Source: Fundidesulfovibrio agrisoli
GTDB taxonomy: Bacteria > Desulfobacterota > Desulfovibrionia > Desulfovibrionales > Desulfovibrionaceae
Assembly: GCF_022808715.1 (NCBI RefSeq)
Contig: NZ_JAKZKX010000008.1
Location: 1 to 64,000, forward strand
Length of the DNA: 64,000 bases
Reading direction: 5' to 3'
Below the pieces are notes generated by a model. The model was not told the DNA's origin and searched no databases. It saw nothing but the letters and a program-made list of their open reading frames with translations. Shown piece after piece: positions 4,873 through 60,154 of this stretch (positions within the stretch are counted from its first letter, which is position 1; every line of letters starts with the position of its first letter). Made by a program: the position numbers and the translations under genes.

Positions 4873-6007
4873 CAAGCCCGCCATTCACCACCACATGCTC
4901 CTGGAGCGTCGCGGCGGCGCGGCCGCTGTTGCCCGCTCGTTGGCTGCGGCTCAGCGCGAATCCTCCTGGGAGGTGACGCTGAGTTGCGAAGCCCGTGAGC
5001 CCGCGCCTGAAGGGGGCGATGCCCTGGGCGGCAGCCCCGATACGGTTTTGGTGGAGCCCGGGCGCGTGGCCTTCGAGGCCCCGGCCGGGGCCGTGACGCA
5101 TGTGCACGCCACCACGGACTGGGCGGCCCTGCTGGAGGGCTTCCTTGCCGCCGGGCGGAAACCGCTGCTCACGGTGCACGATTGTTCGCTGTTCACAGGC
5201 GGGTGCGTTTACCCGCTGGACTGCCCCAAGCGGGAGCGGGGCTGCCCCGACCCCTGCCCCAGGGGATTCGCGGATTCCGCCAGGGTTCTGGCCGTGAAGC
5301 TCGACCTGGTGCGCAGGCTCAAGCCCATGCTGGTCTCCCCGTCGGCCTGGCTGGCGCGCCAACTGCGTCAGGTGTGGCCGGACTGCCGGGTCAGGGTGGC
5401 GCCCAACGGCGTGCGCGTCCCCCTCGAACTGGAGGACAAGCTCGCAGCGAGGGCTGCGTTCGGCATCGCCCCACAGGCCAGGACGGCCCTCTTCCTGGCC
5501 CACGGCGGCGTGCGCGCGGCCTACAAGGGCGGCGGGCGCATCGAAGACATCTTTGCCAAGCTGCGGGAGCTGGCGCCCGGCACTCTCGGCGTGGTGGCCG
5601 GAGGGGACGAGAGCCGCATGGTCGAAGGCTTGGCCGTATTTCCCTATCTCGAAGGCGAGAGGCTGCGCTCGCTCATGCGCGCGGCAGACGTGCTGGTGTA
5701 CCCAACCTTGGCGGACAACCACCCGCTGGTGGTGCTGGAGTCCATGGCCCAGGGCGTGCCGGTGGCCGCATACGGGGTGGGTGGGGTACCTGAGCAGATG
5801 ACGGACGGCGTGGAAGGGTTCGTGGTCCCGCCGGGTGACGAGCCCTGGCTTGCCGGAGCGTGCGCCCGGCTGCTCTGCGACCAGGGCCTGGCCAGGGGAA
5901 TGGGCCGGGAGGCCCGCGCCAGGGCGCTGCGCCACTTCACGGTGGAGCGCATGGCCCTGGATTACTGGCGCATCACCGAAAAAATGGCGGCGGAAGCCCT
6001 CCGATAA
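4865..6007 (+). CDS. GT4-family glycosyltransferase (WcaC-like N-terminal motif)
   Basis: Second glycosyltransferase of a two-gene unit, 380 residues from a GTG start inside the end of the previous gene; CTGGAG lies just upstream. It carries the TVHDCSLFTGGCVYPLDC stretch followed by a Cys cluster (GCPDPCP), typical of WcaC-type GT4 enzymes. The C-terminal donor-binding motif is ADVLVYPTLADNHPLVVLES followed by GVPVAAYGVGGVPEQM. It likely adds a sugar in the same glycan pathway as its neighbour. A short hairpin and T-rich tract follow the gene. The substrate is unknown, and the four-cysteine cluster could be structural or metal-binding. Confidence 0.85.
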   Translation: MTDKPAIHHHMLLERRGGAAAVARSLAAAQRESSWEVTLSCEAREPAPEGGDALGGSPDTVLVEPGRVAFEAPAGAVTHVHATTDWAALLEGFLAAGRKPLLTVHDCSLFTGGCVYPLDCPKRERGCPDPCPRGFADSARVLAVKLDLVRRLKPMLVSPSAWLARQLRQVWPDCRVRVAPNGVRVPLELEDKLAARAAFGIAPQARTALFLAHGGVRAAYKGGGRIEDIFAKLRELAPGTLGVVAGGDESRMVEGLAVFPYLEGERLRSLMRAADVLVYPTLADNHPLVVLESMAQGVPVAAYGVGGVPEQMTDGVEGFVVPPGDEPWLAGACARLLCDQGLARGMGREARARALRHFTVERMALDYWRITEKMAAEALR

Positions 6008-10255: not shown

Positions 10256-10708
10256 ATGAATCGACTGGTTGTTGTTGTTTGGATCGTCTCTATATTCCTC
10301 GCGCCATCCTTCGCCTGTGCCCAGGCTGTCTATGTCGGCAGCAAGGCCTGTGGCGAATGTCATTCCGCCCAGTTCGATAGCTTCTCGAAGTATTCCAAGA
10401 AGGCCCATTCCTGGAATTCCATCGCCGTCATGATTCCCAAGCTCACGCAGGCCGAAATCGAAGGCTGTTATGAATGCCACACCACGGGCTACAAGAAGCC
10501 TGGCGGCTTCGTGAGCAAGGACAAGACCCCCGAACTTTCCGACGTGGGCTGCGAAACCTGCCACGGCCCCGGCTCCGCACATGCCGCCAGCAGCGACCCC
10601 AAGCTGATAAAACCCAAGCCTCGCCTTTCCGATTGCGTCGTCTGCCACAACTCGCAGCGCGTGTCGGACTTCAAGTTCAAGCCTCTCGTGGCGTCTGGGG
10701 CGCACTAG
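10256..10708 (+). CDS. Exported tetraheme cytochrome c
   Basis: 150-residue protein with a signal peptide (basic start, hydrophobic core, cut near SFACAQA). It has four CxxCH heme c sites: CGECH (Cys32), CYECH (Cys71), CETCH (Cys99) and CVVCH (Cys127). HTTGY and HGPGS after the second and third sites resemble the cytochrome c554 / multiheme fold (His ligands spaced from the motif). It is expected to shuttle electrons in the periplasm. ATG 10256 has GAGG 5 nt upstream. It lies 121 bp before a chemoreceptor that also carries a heme c motif, and the two probably share a transcript. The partner is inferred from position only. Confidence 0.9.
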
Positions 10709-57099: not shown

Positions 57100-57984
57100 C
57101 TACGCGGCGATCAGCCCAGCCTTGCGCAGAACCTCGGCCAGCTTGGCCTCGTTCTCGCCGGAAAGGCCCACCAGCGGCAGCCGTATCTCGGGGCTGATGC
57201 GGCCCATGAGCCCCAGCGCAGCCTTGACCGGGATGGGGTTGGTCTCAAGGAACATGGCCCGGTTGATGGGGGCCAGCTTGTAGTGCAGCCGCTTGGCCTT
57301 CTCGATGTCGCCCTTGCGCCAGGCCTTGCAGAGCTTGCGCATCAGGCCCGGGGCCACGTTGGAGCTCACCGAGATGACGCCGTGGCCGCCGACCGCCAGG
57401 GTGGGCAGCACGGTGAAGTCGTCCCCGGAGAGGATGATGAAATCATCGCCGCAGTATTCGATCAGGTCGGAGACCTGGCAGAGGTTGCCGGTGGCCTCCT
57501 TGATGCCCACCACCTCGGGGGCCTGCTTGCGCAGGGCGGCCACGGTCTGGGGCAGCAGGTTCACGGCGGTGCGGCCGGGCACGTTGTAGACGATGATGGG
57601 CATGGGCACTTCCTTGGCGATGGCCTTGAAGTGCTCGATGAGCCCAGCCTGCGTGGGCTTGTTGTAGTAGGGCGTGATGAGCAGGGCCCCGTCGGCTTTG
57701 GCGTTTTTGGCGCAGCGGGTCAGGTCGATGGCCTCGATGGTGTTGTTGGACCCGGCCCCGGCGAGCACCGGAACGCGGCCTTTCACCTGATCCACGCAGA
57801 TGCGCACGACCTGCTCGTGCTCGGCGTGGGAGAGGGTGGGGGACTCGCCGGTGGTGCCGCAGGGGACCAAACCGTCGATGCCCTCTTCGATCTGCCATTC
57901 GATGTGCGCACGGTACGCTTCCTCGTCGACCTTGCCGTTCTTGAACGGGGTCACGAGCGCCGTGAAGGCTCCTGAAAACTGCAT
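57100..57984 (-). CDS. dapA: 4-hydroxy-tetrahydrodipicolinate synthase
   Basis: Condenses pyruvate with aspartate semialdehyde in lysine/diaminopimelate synthesis. 294 residues from ATG 57982-57984 (GGAGG 5-6 nt upstream). TIM-barrel lyase motifs: GLVPCGTTGESPTLSHAEHE, ITPYYNKPTQAGL, the Tyr of IIVYNVPGRT and the Schiff-base Lys in VVGIKEATGN. Last gene of the prfB-to-dapA minus-strand group, 48 bp after the selenoprotein gene. Confidence 0.97.
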   Translation of the reverse strand: MQFSGAFTALVTPFKNGKVDEEAYRAHIEWQIEEGIDGLVPCGTTGESPTLSHAEHEQVVRICVDQVKGRVPVLAGAGSNNTIEAIDLTRCAKNAKADGALLITPYYNKPTQAGLIEHFKAIAKEVPMPIIVYNVPGRTAVNLLPQTVAALRKQAPEVVGIKEATGNLCQVSDLIEYCGDDFIILSGDDFTVLPTLAVGGHGVISVSSNVAPGLMRKLCKAWRKGDIEKAKRLHYKLAPINRAMFLETNPIPVKAALGLMGRISPEIRLPLVGLSGENEAKLAEVLRKAGLIAA

Positions 57985-58032: not shown

Positions 58033-58938
58033 TTACTGCTTCGCGGTCTTGTCGCCGGGGTCGGGGACGTTCTGCAGCAGCTCCGTCATTTCCTGATCCG
58101 GCTGGATCTTCTCGTCCAGGATCAGGGCCTGGGTCGTATAATTGCTGCCCATCTCCCACTTGAAGTTCCTGTCGCCGGGCATGGCGAGCAGGTCAAGCGT
58201 GTAGATGGCCTTGCCCTTGCTGTAGCTGTGCATCCAGAGCAGGCGTCCGCTCACGTAAGGCTTGGCGGAGAAGCCCACACCGGGGCCGCTGCCGAGAAGC
58301 ACGTCGAGGTCCGGCCGGGTCTTCTCCAGATAGTTCGACTCGGCCTGCACGCCCCAGGGGCTCACGCCGATGACCATCACGGACTGGGAGCGCAGCTCCT
58401 TGATCTTGCGGTTGATGGCCTGGGCCTGGTCATCCGTGGGGCCGTCGCCCAATTTCTTGCTCATGGGAAAGAACACGACGCCGATCTTGCCCTTGGGCGA
58501 GTCGATGAGCTGCGTCCTGGGCTCCTTGGGGTCGAGTGTCACCCAGCCCTTGGGGGCGGCGATGCCCATGGAGGCCAGTTTGGCGGCCTCGGCCGGGGTG
58601 AGCGCCCCCGCATCGTAATGCAGGGAGTCGTACGCCTTGACCAGGGGGGCGTAGGCCTCATCCACGGCGTGGTCCGCTCCGTCATCGGAGATGAATTCAT
58701 AACCGCCCGCGATGAAGATCGCAGCCGGCGCGGAACCGGCGGCGGGACGGTACTGCTTGAAAGCGCTGGCCCTCCGGGTCAGCCCACCGATGGTGTGGTT
58801 GCCTCAGGTGGGGCAGGGCTTGAGGTAGCCCCAGCTGTTGCCCGAAAAGACGATAGTGAGCACCGGCTCGGCCAGGGCGTACCCGGCCAGGGCCGAAACG
58901 AGAAGCAAAGCGGCGAAAAACGCCGAAACGTAACGCAT
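58033..58938 (-). CDS. UshA-like exported protein, probable selenoprotein (in-frame UGA, CxxU)
   Basis: Reading from ATG 58936-58938 gives a signal peptide (MRYVSAFFAALLLVSALAGY, cut near ALAEP) and then SGNSWGYLKPCPT. UGA at 58804-58806 (codon 45) comes next, and the same frame stays open to TAA at 58033: GNHTIGGLTRR, then FIAGGYEFISDDGADHAVDE and on. With UGA as selenocysteine the protein has 301 residues and a CPTU redox motif (Cys42, Sec45). The body resembles the N-terminal metallophosphatase region of UshA/5'-nucleotidase proteins; I recall a family annotated UshA-like (seleno)protein in sulfate reducers. Without recoding it would be a 44-codon stub. Located 10 bp after the HU/IHF gene. 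Confidence 0.85.
58784..58806 (-). promoter_or_regulatory. Selenocysteine UGA and candidate bacterial SECIS
   Basis: Just 3' of the UGA (58804-58806) the transcript can form a small hairpin, CCAC (58795-58798) with GUGG (58784-58787) around an ACCAUCG loop. A bacterial SECIS would be expected within about 40 nt of the UGA. The fold is short, so the element needs a proper search. Confidence 0.45.
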
Positions 58939-58948
58939 GAGGCAGAAC

Positions 58949-59224
58949 CTACTTGTTGAGAAATTCCTTGAGTTCCTTGCCGGGCCTGAAGAAGGGCAGG
59001 CGCTTGGGGGCGACGTTGACCACTTCCCCGGACTTGGGGTTGCGGCCGGTGTAGCCCTTGTATCCTTTGACCTTGAAGCTGCCGAAGCCGCGAATCTCCA
59101 CGCGGTCCCCGTCTACGAGGGCCTGTTTGATGGAATCGATGAACGAGTTGACCACGGCGGAGGCTTCGTCGGCGTGGATGTCGCGGCTTTCGGCCAGGGT
59201 GTTGATAAGCTCGCTTTTGTTCAT
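58949..59224 (-). CDS. HU/IHF-family DNA-binding protein
   Basis: 91 residues: MNKSELINTLAESRDIHADE, VEIRGFGSFKVKGYKGYTGR, NPKSGEVVNVAPKRLPFFRP and GKELKEFLNK. The beta-arm signature with RNPKSGE is of IHF-beta type, but HU is possible. It bends DNA and organises the nucleoid. GGAG is 9 nt upstream. It lies between flhG and the selenoprotein gene, all co-directional. Confidence 0.93.
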   Translation of the reverse strand: MNKSELINTLAESRDIHADEASAVVNSFIDSIKQALVDGDRVEIRGFGSFKVKGYKGYTGRNPKSGEVVNVAPKRLPFFRPGKELKEFLNK

Positions 59225-59326: not shown

Positions 59327-60154
59327 TTAACCATGCGTTATTTTTTTCAAAATCGCTTTTTCCGCCAACTCGGGCCTGCACTCGGCCCTGTGACGGGCGA
59401 TCTTGATGGCCAGGCTGAGGATGTCCTGCGAGGCCCTGCACTTCGGGGCGTGCTTGATCAGGGGGGTCTGCCTGCGCACGGCTTCAGGAACGTTCGGGTC
59501 ACTGTGCACGCAACCCATGTAGCTGATATCGAGCCCCAGGAAGCGCTTGCAGGCTCCGGCAAGGCGCTCGAAGGTCAGCTGGCCCTCCTTTGGGTCGCTG
59601 ACCTGGTTGACCACCACCTGGAAGTCCGAGATGCCGTGCTGGGAGTTGAGCACCTTGATGACGGCGTAGCTGTCCGTGAGGGAGGTGGGCTCCGGGGTGA
59701 CCACCATGATGCGCATGCGCGTCATGGCCGCCAGGGAGAGCACGGTCTTGCCGATGCCCGCGCCCAGGTCGAAGACGATGTAGTCGTATTCCCCCAGCGC
59801 CGAATTCAGCTTGGAGAACACGGAGTCGCGCATGTCGTCGTCGAGCTCCAGAAGTTCGGGCACGCCGCTGGCGGCGGGCAGGAAGTCGAACCCCTCCGGC
59901 TCCACGCAGGCCACCACGTCCGCGGGGGTCACCCCGGGTTGGAGCAGGTCCTGCAGGTTCTTCTCCGGCGAGATGCCCAGGAGCACGTCCACGTTGGCCA
60001 GGCCCACGTCGAAGTCCATCATGAGCATGCGGTAGTTGGCGCGGTAGAGCGCGTAGGAAAGATTGAGCGCCAGGTTGCTCTTGCCCACCCCTCCCTTGCC
60101 GGAAAGGATGCACAGGCTCATGGTGCAGCGTGGGTTCGCGGATTGCTTGCTCAT
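59327..60154 (-). CDS. flhG: MinD/ParA-type ATPase FlhG
   Basis: 275 residues with a deviant Walker A, LSGKGGVGKSNLALNLSYAL, and the MinD-like DFDVGLANVDVLLG and YIVFDLGAGIGKTVL. The sequence follows FlhG/FleN, which sets flagellar number and location through FlhF and the flagellar switch. The C-terminus has basic residues rather than an obvious amphipathic MinD membrane helix. ATG overlaps the TGA of the diguanylate cyclase (ATGA), linking motility and c-di-GMP. No flhF is in the window. Confidence 0.85.
   Translation of the reverse strand: MSKQSANPRCTMSLCILSGKGGVGKSNLALNLSYALYRANYRMLMMDFDVGLANVDVLLGISPEKNLQDLLQPGVTPADVVACVEPEGFDFLPAASGVPELLELDDDMRDSVFSKLNSALGEYDYIVFDLGAGIGKTVLSLAAMTRMRIMVVTPEPTSLTDSYAVIKVLNSQHGISDFQVVVNQVSDPKEGQLTFERLAGACKRFLGLDISYMGCVHSDPNVPEAVRRQTPLIKHAPKCRASQDILSLAIKIARHRAECRPELAEKAILKKITHG

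What the first reader, a model, noticed from the sequence alone, without database searches (positions are those of the whole stretch)
58033..58938. Probable selenoprotein: UGA inside a CPTU redox motif of an UshA-like exported protein
The frame is coding on both sides of a single TGA: signal peptide and SGNSWGYLKPCPT before, about 256 residues after. A CxxU motif is exactly where a selenocysteine would be useful. It lies in a gene group with HU, flhG and dapA in a likely sulfate reducer, a group rich in selenoproteins. A standard gene caller would report only the downstream 210 residues and miss the signal peptide and the active motif. A periplasmic selenoprotein with a thiol-type motif joined to an UshA-like fold is functionally open.
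Basis: partly seen in the sequence, partly recalled or inferred. Interest (0 to 1): 0.82.

Follow-up and report, generated by a model that had tools for sequence, protein, structure and literature searches.

The report
Known selenoprotein, UshA-like family 2
The stop codon inside this gene is almost certainly read as the rare amino acid selenocysteine; the protein belongs to an already named but functionally unstudied family of exported selenoproteins found in relatives of sulfate-reducing bacteria.

Summary
Window 58938-58033 (minus) is a 301-codon frame with a probable signal peptide and one in-frame TGA (codon 45) in PCPTUG. Selenocysteine is strongly supported: the genome has tRNA-Sec, selA, selB and selD; of 99 copies read, 82 have TGA and 17 TGC (Cys) there, with at least five exchanges on a tree; a SECIS-type hairpin 28 nt downstream is fully paired in 74 of 82 Sec but 2 of 17 Cys copies. 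However, the family is already known: NCBIfam NF049981, 'UshA-like (seleno)protein family 2', 292.6 bits against a cut-off of 140, listed as CxxU in a 2026 review. Added here: the domain is homologous to the 5'-nucleotidase catalytic domain, but the metal ligands are almost all lost, two positions being mostly aromatic. It is therefore probably a metal-free periplasmic selenol/thiol redox protein and not a phosphatase. That is inference; substrate and partner are unknown. A c554-type cytochrome partner is a weak, testable guess.

The parts
58033..58938 (-). UshA-like selenoprotein family 2 gene, 301 codons plus TAA
   Evidence: open frame with one TGA; NF049981 292.6 bits, cut-off 140
58870..58938 (-). 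Probable signal peptide (residues 1-23, ALA|E type cleavage site), assigned by eye
   Evidence: sequence inspection only; no signal-peptide predictor was on hand
58804..58806 (-). Sec UGA, codon 45, in the PCPTU motif
   Evidence: TGA in 82 of 99 copies read (this one included), TGC in the other 17
58765..58783 (-). SECIS-type hairpin GCTGACCC-GGA-GGGCCAGC; the loop GGA begins after 28 nt from the UGA; one A.C mismatch in this copy
   Evidence: -8.3 kcal/mol
58949..59224 (-). HU/IHF-family DNA-binding protein gene, directly upstream
   Evidence: same place in 60 of 68 copies, this one included
57100..57984 (-). dapA, directly downstream
   Evidence: (364 bits, cut-off 206), 66: downstream in 58 of 68 copies, this one included
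59327..60154 (-). MinD/FlhG-type ATPase gene, syntenic neighbour
   Evidence: upstream in 63 of 68 copies, this one included

Best explanation
This is a genuine selenoprotein of the known family NF049981 (UshA-like selenoprotein family 2). SelB, guided by a hairpin 28 nt downstream, inserts Sec at UGA-45. The product is exported by a signal peptide. Its domain derives from the catalytic domain of 5'-nucleotidases, but the metal-binding residues are lost, and a CPxU motif sits in the loop after the first strand, near the former metal site. The most likely activity is a metal-free periplasmic selenol/thiol oxidoreductase: the Sec selenolate attacks a disulfide, peroxide or sulfur substrate, and Cys42 resolves the selenenyl-sulfide. 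Supported by computation: the Sec reading, homology to the nucleotidase domain, and loss of the metal ligands. Inferred: export, the motif's place in the fold, the redox chemistry. Unknown: substrate and electron partner.
For: NF049981 at 292.6 bits, cut-off 140. Sec machinery: tRNA-Sec TCA, selB 366.8 bits, selA 603.9, selD 331.7 with its own TGA. 186 of 348 class genomes match the family, 180 over the cut-off. Of 99 copies read, 82 have TGA and 17 TGC; a 97-row tree needs 5 Sec/Cys changes, 4 forced by well-supported branches. Of 40 genomes chosen for comparison, 15 of 16 with a selA match have a TGA copy, while 11 of 24 without one have only TGA-free matches. Hairpin: 97.1% of cells paired against 29.5-53.2% when slid; all six pairs in 74 of 82 Sec but 2 of 17 Cys copies; Arg56 is CGG/AGG in 60 of 64 Sec copies against 31.6% of 953 other Arg codons of these genes. 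Homology: hhalign 98.9%, E 3e-17, to UshA-type proteins. Former ligand positions in 68 copies: Asp in 3 at 34, His in 0 at 36, Asp in 0 at 80, Asn in 1 at 115, His in 2 at 194; the GHxH stretch has no counterpart (gap). Cys42 is kept in 98 of 99 copies.
Against: No experiment on the family was found in the papers searched. 13 of the 24 genomes without a selA match still have a TGA copy; most are incomplete drafts, but G081, G056 and G329 are 93, 94 and 96% complete. Conversely, 6 of the 17 Cys copies lie in genomes that do have selA. The window's hairpin has an A.C mismatch after 3 bp, short of a strict 4-bp upper stem. Folding energy against synonymous shuffles is only weakly low (mean z -1.03 over 62 Sec copies) and does not separate them from 6 Cys copies. 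Covariation is slight: 1 of 6 pairs, in one sequence, changes on both sides, and 35 of 500 shuffles do as well; 10 of 500 reach the observed pairing. One Sec copy, L097, has PIKAU without the Cys partner, which does not fit a simple CxxU mechanism. The structure model was unusable (pLDDT 43.6), so the place of the motif rests on a profile alignment.
Confidence: 0.82

Rival explanations
1. The TGA is a plain stop or a disabling mutation: a decayed gene whose downstream part is expressed from an internal start.
For: A standard ORF list gives in this frame only the downstream 210-aa ORF.
Against: The TGA is conserved at this codon in 82 of 99 copies read, congeners included, and the rest have TGC; the leader and motif upstream are conserved; the genome has the Sec machinery.
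Confidence: 0.02
2. A selenoprotein whose Sec and Cys bind a metal or other cofactor, so that the domain stays a hydrolase or becomes a metal carrier.
For: It keeps homology to the 5'-nucleotidase domain; E81 and W195 are nearly invariant (67 and 66 of 68); the Cys partner is missing in L097 while Sec stays.
Against: The canonical metal ligands are almost all lost; positions 36 and 80 are aromatic in 56 and 63 of 68. Sec in place of Cys is usually kept for redox catalysis (general knowledge, not tested here).
Confidence: 0.15
3. A selenol/thiol redox protein that exchanges electrons with a stand-alone c554-type multiheme cytochrome, as the cytochrome-like C-terminal part of the family 1 model (NF041198) suggests.
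For: Positions 401-519 of NF041198 match a stand-alone cytochrome in this window (10256-10708; Cytochrome_C554, E 7.5e-20). The N-terminal part of NF041198 matches this protein (E 1e-10). Over 348 class genomes: both 146, family 2 only 40, cytochrome only 39, neither 123.
Against: The association is not corrected for kinship. 40 of 186 genomes with the selenoprotein lack the cytochrome at E <= 1e-10, and 39 have the cytochrome alone. The two genes are 47 kb apart. In 120 class genomes none has a family 1 protein over its cut-off, so the fusion itself was not seen here, only the model.
Confidence: 0.2

Closest known systems
NCBIfam NF049981, UshA-like (seleno)protein family 2
   Same: Full-length match at twice the cut-off, same CxxU motif
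   Different: Nothing of note; it looks like an ordinary member. One A.C mismatch in its hairpin stem.
NCBIfam NF041198, UshA-like (seleno)protein, PCGU (family 1; UshA-like, CxU, in PMC2398784, passages seen)
   Same: N-terminal homology, residues 10-115, E 1e-10
   Different: Below its cut-off (40.9 of 275 bits); CxU and not CxxU; the model has 519 positions with a cytochrome-like C-terminal part
5'-nucleotidase / UshA catalytic domain (COG0737), with SoxB
   Same: Homologous domain by profile comparison; weak direct matches to venom 5'-nucleotidase 5h7w (E 0.02) and SoxB 2wdc (E 0.37)
   Different: Metal ligands almost all lost, no C-terminal second domain (301 aa against about 550), CPxU motif gained

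Membership tests
NF049981 UshA-like (seleno)protein family 2 | Whole-protein score over the curated cut-off (140 bits) | tested here: met
   292.6 bits, model 1-262 of 262
NF049981 UshA-like (seleno)protein family 2 | CxxU motif as listed in PMC13188914 | tested here: met
   PCPTU, codons 41-45
Bacterial selenoprotein | Sec machinery in the genome (selA, selB, selC, selD) | tested here: met
Bacterial selenoprotein | Cys homologues at the Sec position | tested here: met
   17 of 99 copies read, all TGC
Bacterial selenoprotein | bSECIS model: loop 3-9 nt, G in the first two loop positions, 16-37 nt from the UGA, MFE <= -7.5, upper stem 4-16 bp (PMC13188914, Fig. 2 legend) | tested here: inconclusive
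   Loop GGA, spacing 28 nt and -8.3 kcal/mol are met; the stem is 3 bp, A.C mismatch, 4 bp in the window, while all six counted pairs form in 74 of 82 Sec copies
Bacterial selenoprotein | Sec shown in the protein | not testable with these tools
   Needs 75Se labelling or mass spectrometry
5'-nucleotidase (UshA) family | Dimetal-site ligands in NDxH, GD, GNHE, (S/T)H, GHxH (ligand roles recalled; positions read off) | tested here: not met
   N34, W36, Y80, P115, P194 and a gap at GHxH in the window protein; family counts
NF041198 UshA-like (seleno)protein (family 1) | Score over the cut-off (275 bits) | tested here: not met
   40.9 bits

The most novel reading that the evidence does not exclude
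A metallophosphoesterase-type domain that shed its metal site, repacked it with aromatic residues and took on a Cys-Sec pair, becoming a periplasmic selenol oxidoreductase that is not a thioredoxin-type protein, perhaps serving a c554-type cytochrome and kept in a largely fixed housekeeping gene neighbourhood (lnt, prfB, flhG, HU, dapF or dapA).
Probability: 0.35. Interest if true: 0.6.

Novelty: already known. Interest (0 to 1): 0.35.

Why it matters
The family is catalogued, but in the papers found I saw no function for it. A selenoprotein built on a metal-free nucleotidase domain would be an uncommon redox scaffold. The natural Sec/Cys pairs, including tandem Cys and Sec copies in one genus, make the value of selenium directly testable. 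For annotation, it is one more gene that standard callers cut short.

Tried and rejected
Structure: a two-row alignment (window and L061) gave pLDDT 43.6, so no fold search was run. Pfam: no family over its gathering score; the best was AhpC-TSA at E 0.12, and over 38 relatives only scattered weak hits, AhpC-TSA in 4 (best E 0.024); taken as chance. Rfam: 5 hits in 58600-59000, all far below gathering and unrelated. Folding energy against synonymous shuffles did not discriminate; pair and codon counts were used instead. Plasmid records: no match. Genome contigs gave one relative only. Pseudogene or sequencing error: considered and rejected (conserved TGA, Cys homologues). Nucleotidase activity: considered and judged unlikely (ligands lost).

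Selection and dropped rows. The copies read are not a random sample: 30 best-scoring loci, 38 family regions picked by genus and TGA status, L061, and 30 loci of 40 genomes picked for selA status. Four duplicate loci (L066, L067, L083, L087) were dropped. L073 and L097 lacked the pattern PCP.[UC]G; they were added for and are absent from the 68-row alignment and the tree. So Cys42 in 68 of 68 is so by construction; the fair count is 98 of 99. L103 and L106 (duplicates of L099 and L093) were left out. Genomes whose copies were not read: those without a locus id, G177 and G341 among them.

Full report
Observation. The minus-strand frame 58938-58033 holds 301 codons and a TAA, with one TGA at codon 45 in PCPTUG. 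A plain ORF list gives in this frame only the downstream 210 residues. A signal peptide is evident by eye (MRYVSAFFAALLLVSALAGYALA|EP); no predictor was on hand.

Known family. The read-through protein matches NCBIfam NF049981, 'UshA-like (seleno)protein family 2', at 292.6 bits over model positions 1-262 of 262 (cut-off 140). It is the only paper in the held library that names the accession. Another UshA-like selenoprotein family, with CxU, appears in a 2008 marine survey and a 2022 review (PMC2398784, PMC9312934; passages seen) and as NF041198; the present protein scores 40.9 bits there, far below the 275-bit cut-off.

Sec machinery. The window's genome (52 contigs, listed as 100% complete) has tRNA-Sec with anticodon TCA, selB, selA and selD, itself with an in-frame TGA. 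The organism is very probably in the Desulfovibrionaceae: genome G198, of the same genus, has a contig of the same length (17,272) as the named record WSYE01000037.1, a Desulfovibrionaceae MAG. That it reduces sulfate was not tested.

Spread. 186 of 348 genomes of the class match the family, 180 over the cut-off. selA matches 280 of 348. By sets: both 162, family only 24, selA only 118, neither 44. In genus g18 many genomes have selA, but only G142 appears among the family's matches, and that weakly. So selA does not imply the family. Of the 40 genomes searched again, 15 of 16 with a selA match have a TGA copy; the exception, G183, has only a weaker selA match (E 7e-63). Of 24 without one, 11 have only TGA-free matches and 13 have at least one TGA copy (G329 has both kinds). 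Those 13 tell against a clean rule; most are incomplete drafts, but three are 93-96% complete.

Cys at the Sec position. Of 99 copies read, 82 carry TGA and 17 TGC at this codon. Eleven of the 17 come from the genomes, 10 of them without a selA match, but 24 of those 40 genomes were picked for lacking selA. The other six lie in genomes that have selA. In genus g21, TGA copies and TGC copies occur in different genomes. In genus g39, Cys and Sec copies lie in tandem. A tree of 97 rows needs at least 5 Sec/Cys changes, 4 of them forced by well-supported branches (quick method, many weak deep branches). One Sec copy, L097, has PIKAU, without the Cys partner; L122 has PCATU.

SECIS. In 64 aligned Sec copies (57 distinct) the RNA after the UGA can form a six-pair stem (columns 26-31 with 35-40) around a three-base loop that begins after 28 nt. 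97.1% of cells pair, against 29.5-53.2% when partners are slid by 1-3 columns; under shuffling within columns the mean is 96.5% and 10 of 500 shuffles reach the observed value, and covariation is slight. So the support comes from conservation and codon choice more than from covariation. Arg56 is CGG or AGG in 60 of 64 and Arg55 is CGG in 50 of 64, against 31.6% and 20.4% of 953 other Arg codons in these genes (related sequences, not independent). All six pairs form in 74 of 82 Sec copies and 2 of 17 Cys copies, and 5 of the 17 Cys copies have two extra residues between codon and stem. The window's own hairpin folds at -8.3 kcal/mol with one A.C mismatch. It meets the published bSECIS constraints on loop, G position, spacing and energy, but not a strict unbroken 4-bp stem (PMC13188914, Fig. 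2 legend). Energies against synonymous shuffles are weak (mean z -1.03 for 62 Sec copies) and the 6 Cys copies are not clearly different.

Domain and chemistry. A profile of 68 family members aligns over residues 19-297 with 13 UshA-type proteins found by similarity to the NF041198 model, some of which lack NDxH (hhalign 98.9%, E 3e-17). A profile of 38 members finds venom 5'-nucleotidases (E 0.02, 0.03) and SoxB (0.37) weakly in the PDB. At the former metal positions the window protein has N34, W36, Y80, P115 and P194, and the GHxH stretch falls in a gap. Over 68 members: position 34 is Asp in 3; 36 has no His and is aromatic in 56; 80 has no Asp and is aromatic in 63; 115 is Asn in 1; 194 is His in 2. 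E81 is kept in 67 and W195 in 66 of 68. Cys42 is kept in 98 of 99 copies. Hence the claim: a probably metal-free domain with a Cys-Sec pair, most likely a redox protein. The chemistry is inferred, not shown. The structure prediction with two rows was unusable (pLDDT 43.6).

Neighbourhood. In 68 copies, the window's included, an HU-type gene starts 250-300 nt upstream in 60, a FlhG-type gene lies upstream in 63 and dapA downstream in 58 (tblastn matches, and about half of the loci hold only 1.5 kb of flank). prfB and lnt lie further up in most longer loci; L099 and L100 show prfB and HU without flhG. In 11 of 12 loci inspected where dapA is further away or absent, the next long ORF looks by eye like diaminopimelate epimerase, dapF (no family search). 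Three second copies (L064, L080, L094) show none of these neighbours and form their own clade. The neighbourhood is housekeeping and says little about function.

A possible partner. The NF041198 model ends in a part (positions 401-519) that matches a stand-alone c554-type cytochrome at 10256-10708 of this window. Over 348 genomes the cytochrome (E <= 1e-10) and the selenoprotein occur together in 146, apart in 40 and 39, and neither in 123. This is not corrected for kinship, and no family 1 protein over its cut-off was found in 120 class genomes. It is a lead, not a finding.

Verdict. The finding is real and the reading as a selenoprotein is right, but the family is already catalogued. The added points are the loss of the metal site, a hairpin that tracks Sec and not Cys, repeated Sec/Cys exchange, and the conserved gene order.

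Noticed in passing
window 10256-10708 (+): Stand-alone small c554-type multiheme cytochrome (Cytochrome_C554, E 7.5e-20) that also matches the C-terminal part of NF041198; a second one lies on contig C12.
   Followed up: partly
L097 (G018) 5346-5393: Sec copy with PIKAU: the Cys partner is missing but Sec and the hairpin are kept.
   Followed up: no
L073, L075, L077, L093: Sec copies in which only 4 of the 6 common stem pairs form; L077 and L093 fold into a similar alternative stem with an earlier loop.
   Followed up: no
L089, L090, L091, L102 (genus g39): Tandem Cys and Sec copies of the gene; in L089, L090 and L091 the Cys copy lies next to HU.
   Followed up: partly
L114 (G045): Sec copy with LARRK in place of LARRA and almost none of the common stem (1 of 6 pairs), so its SECIS, if any, must differ.
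   Followed up: no
genus g18 of the class: Many genomes have selA, yet only one, weakly, matches this family, so it is dispensable there.
   Followed up: no
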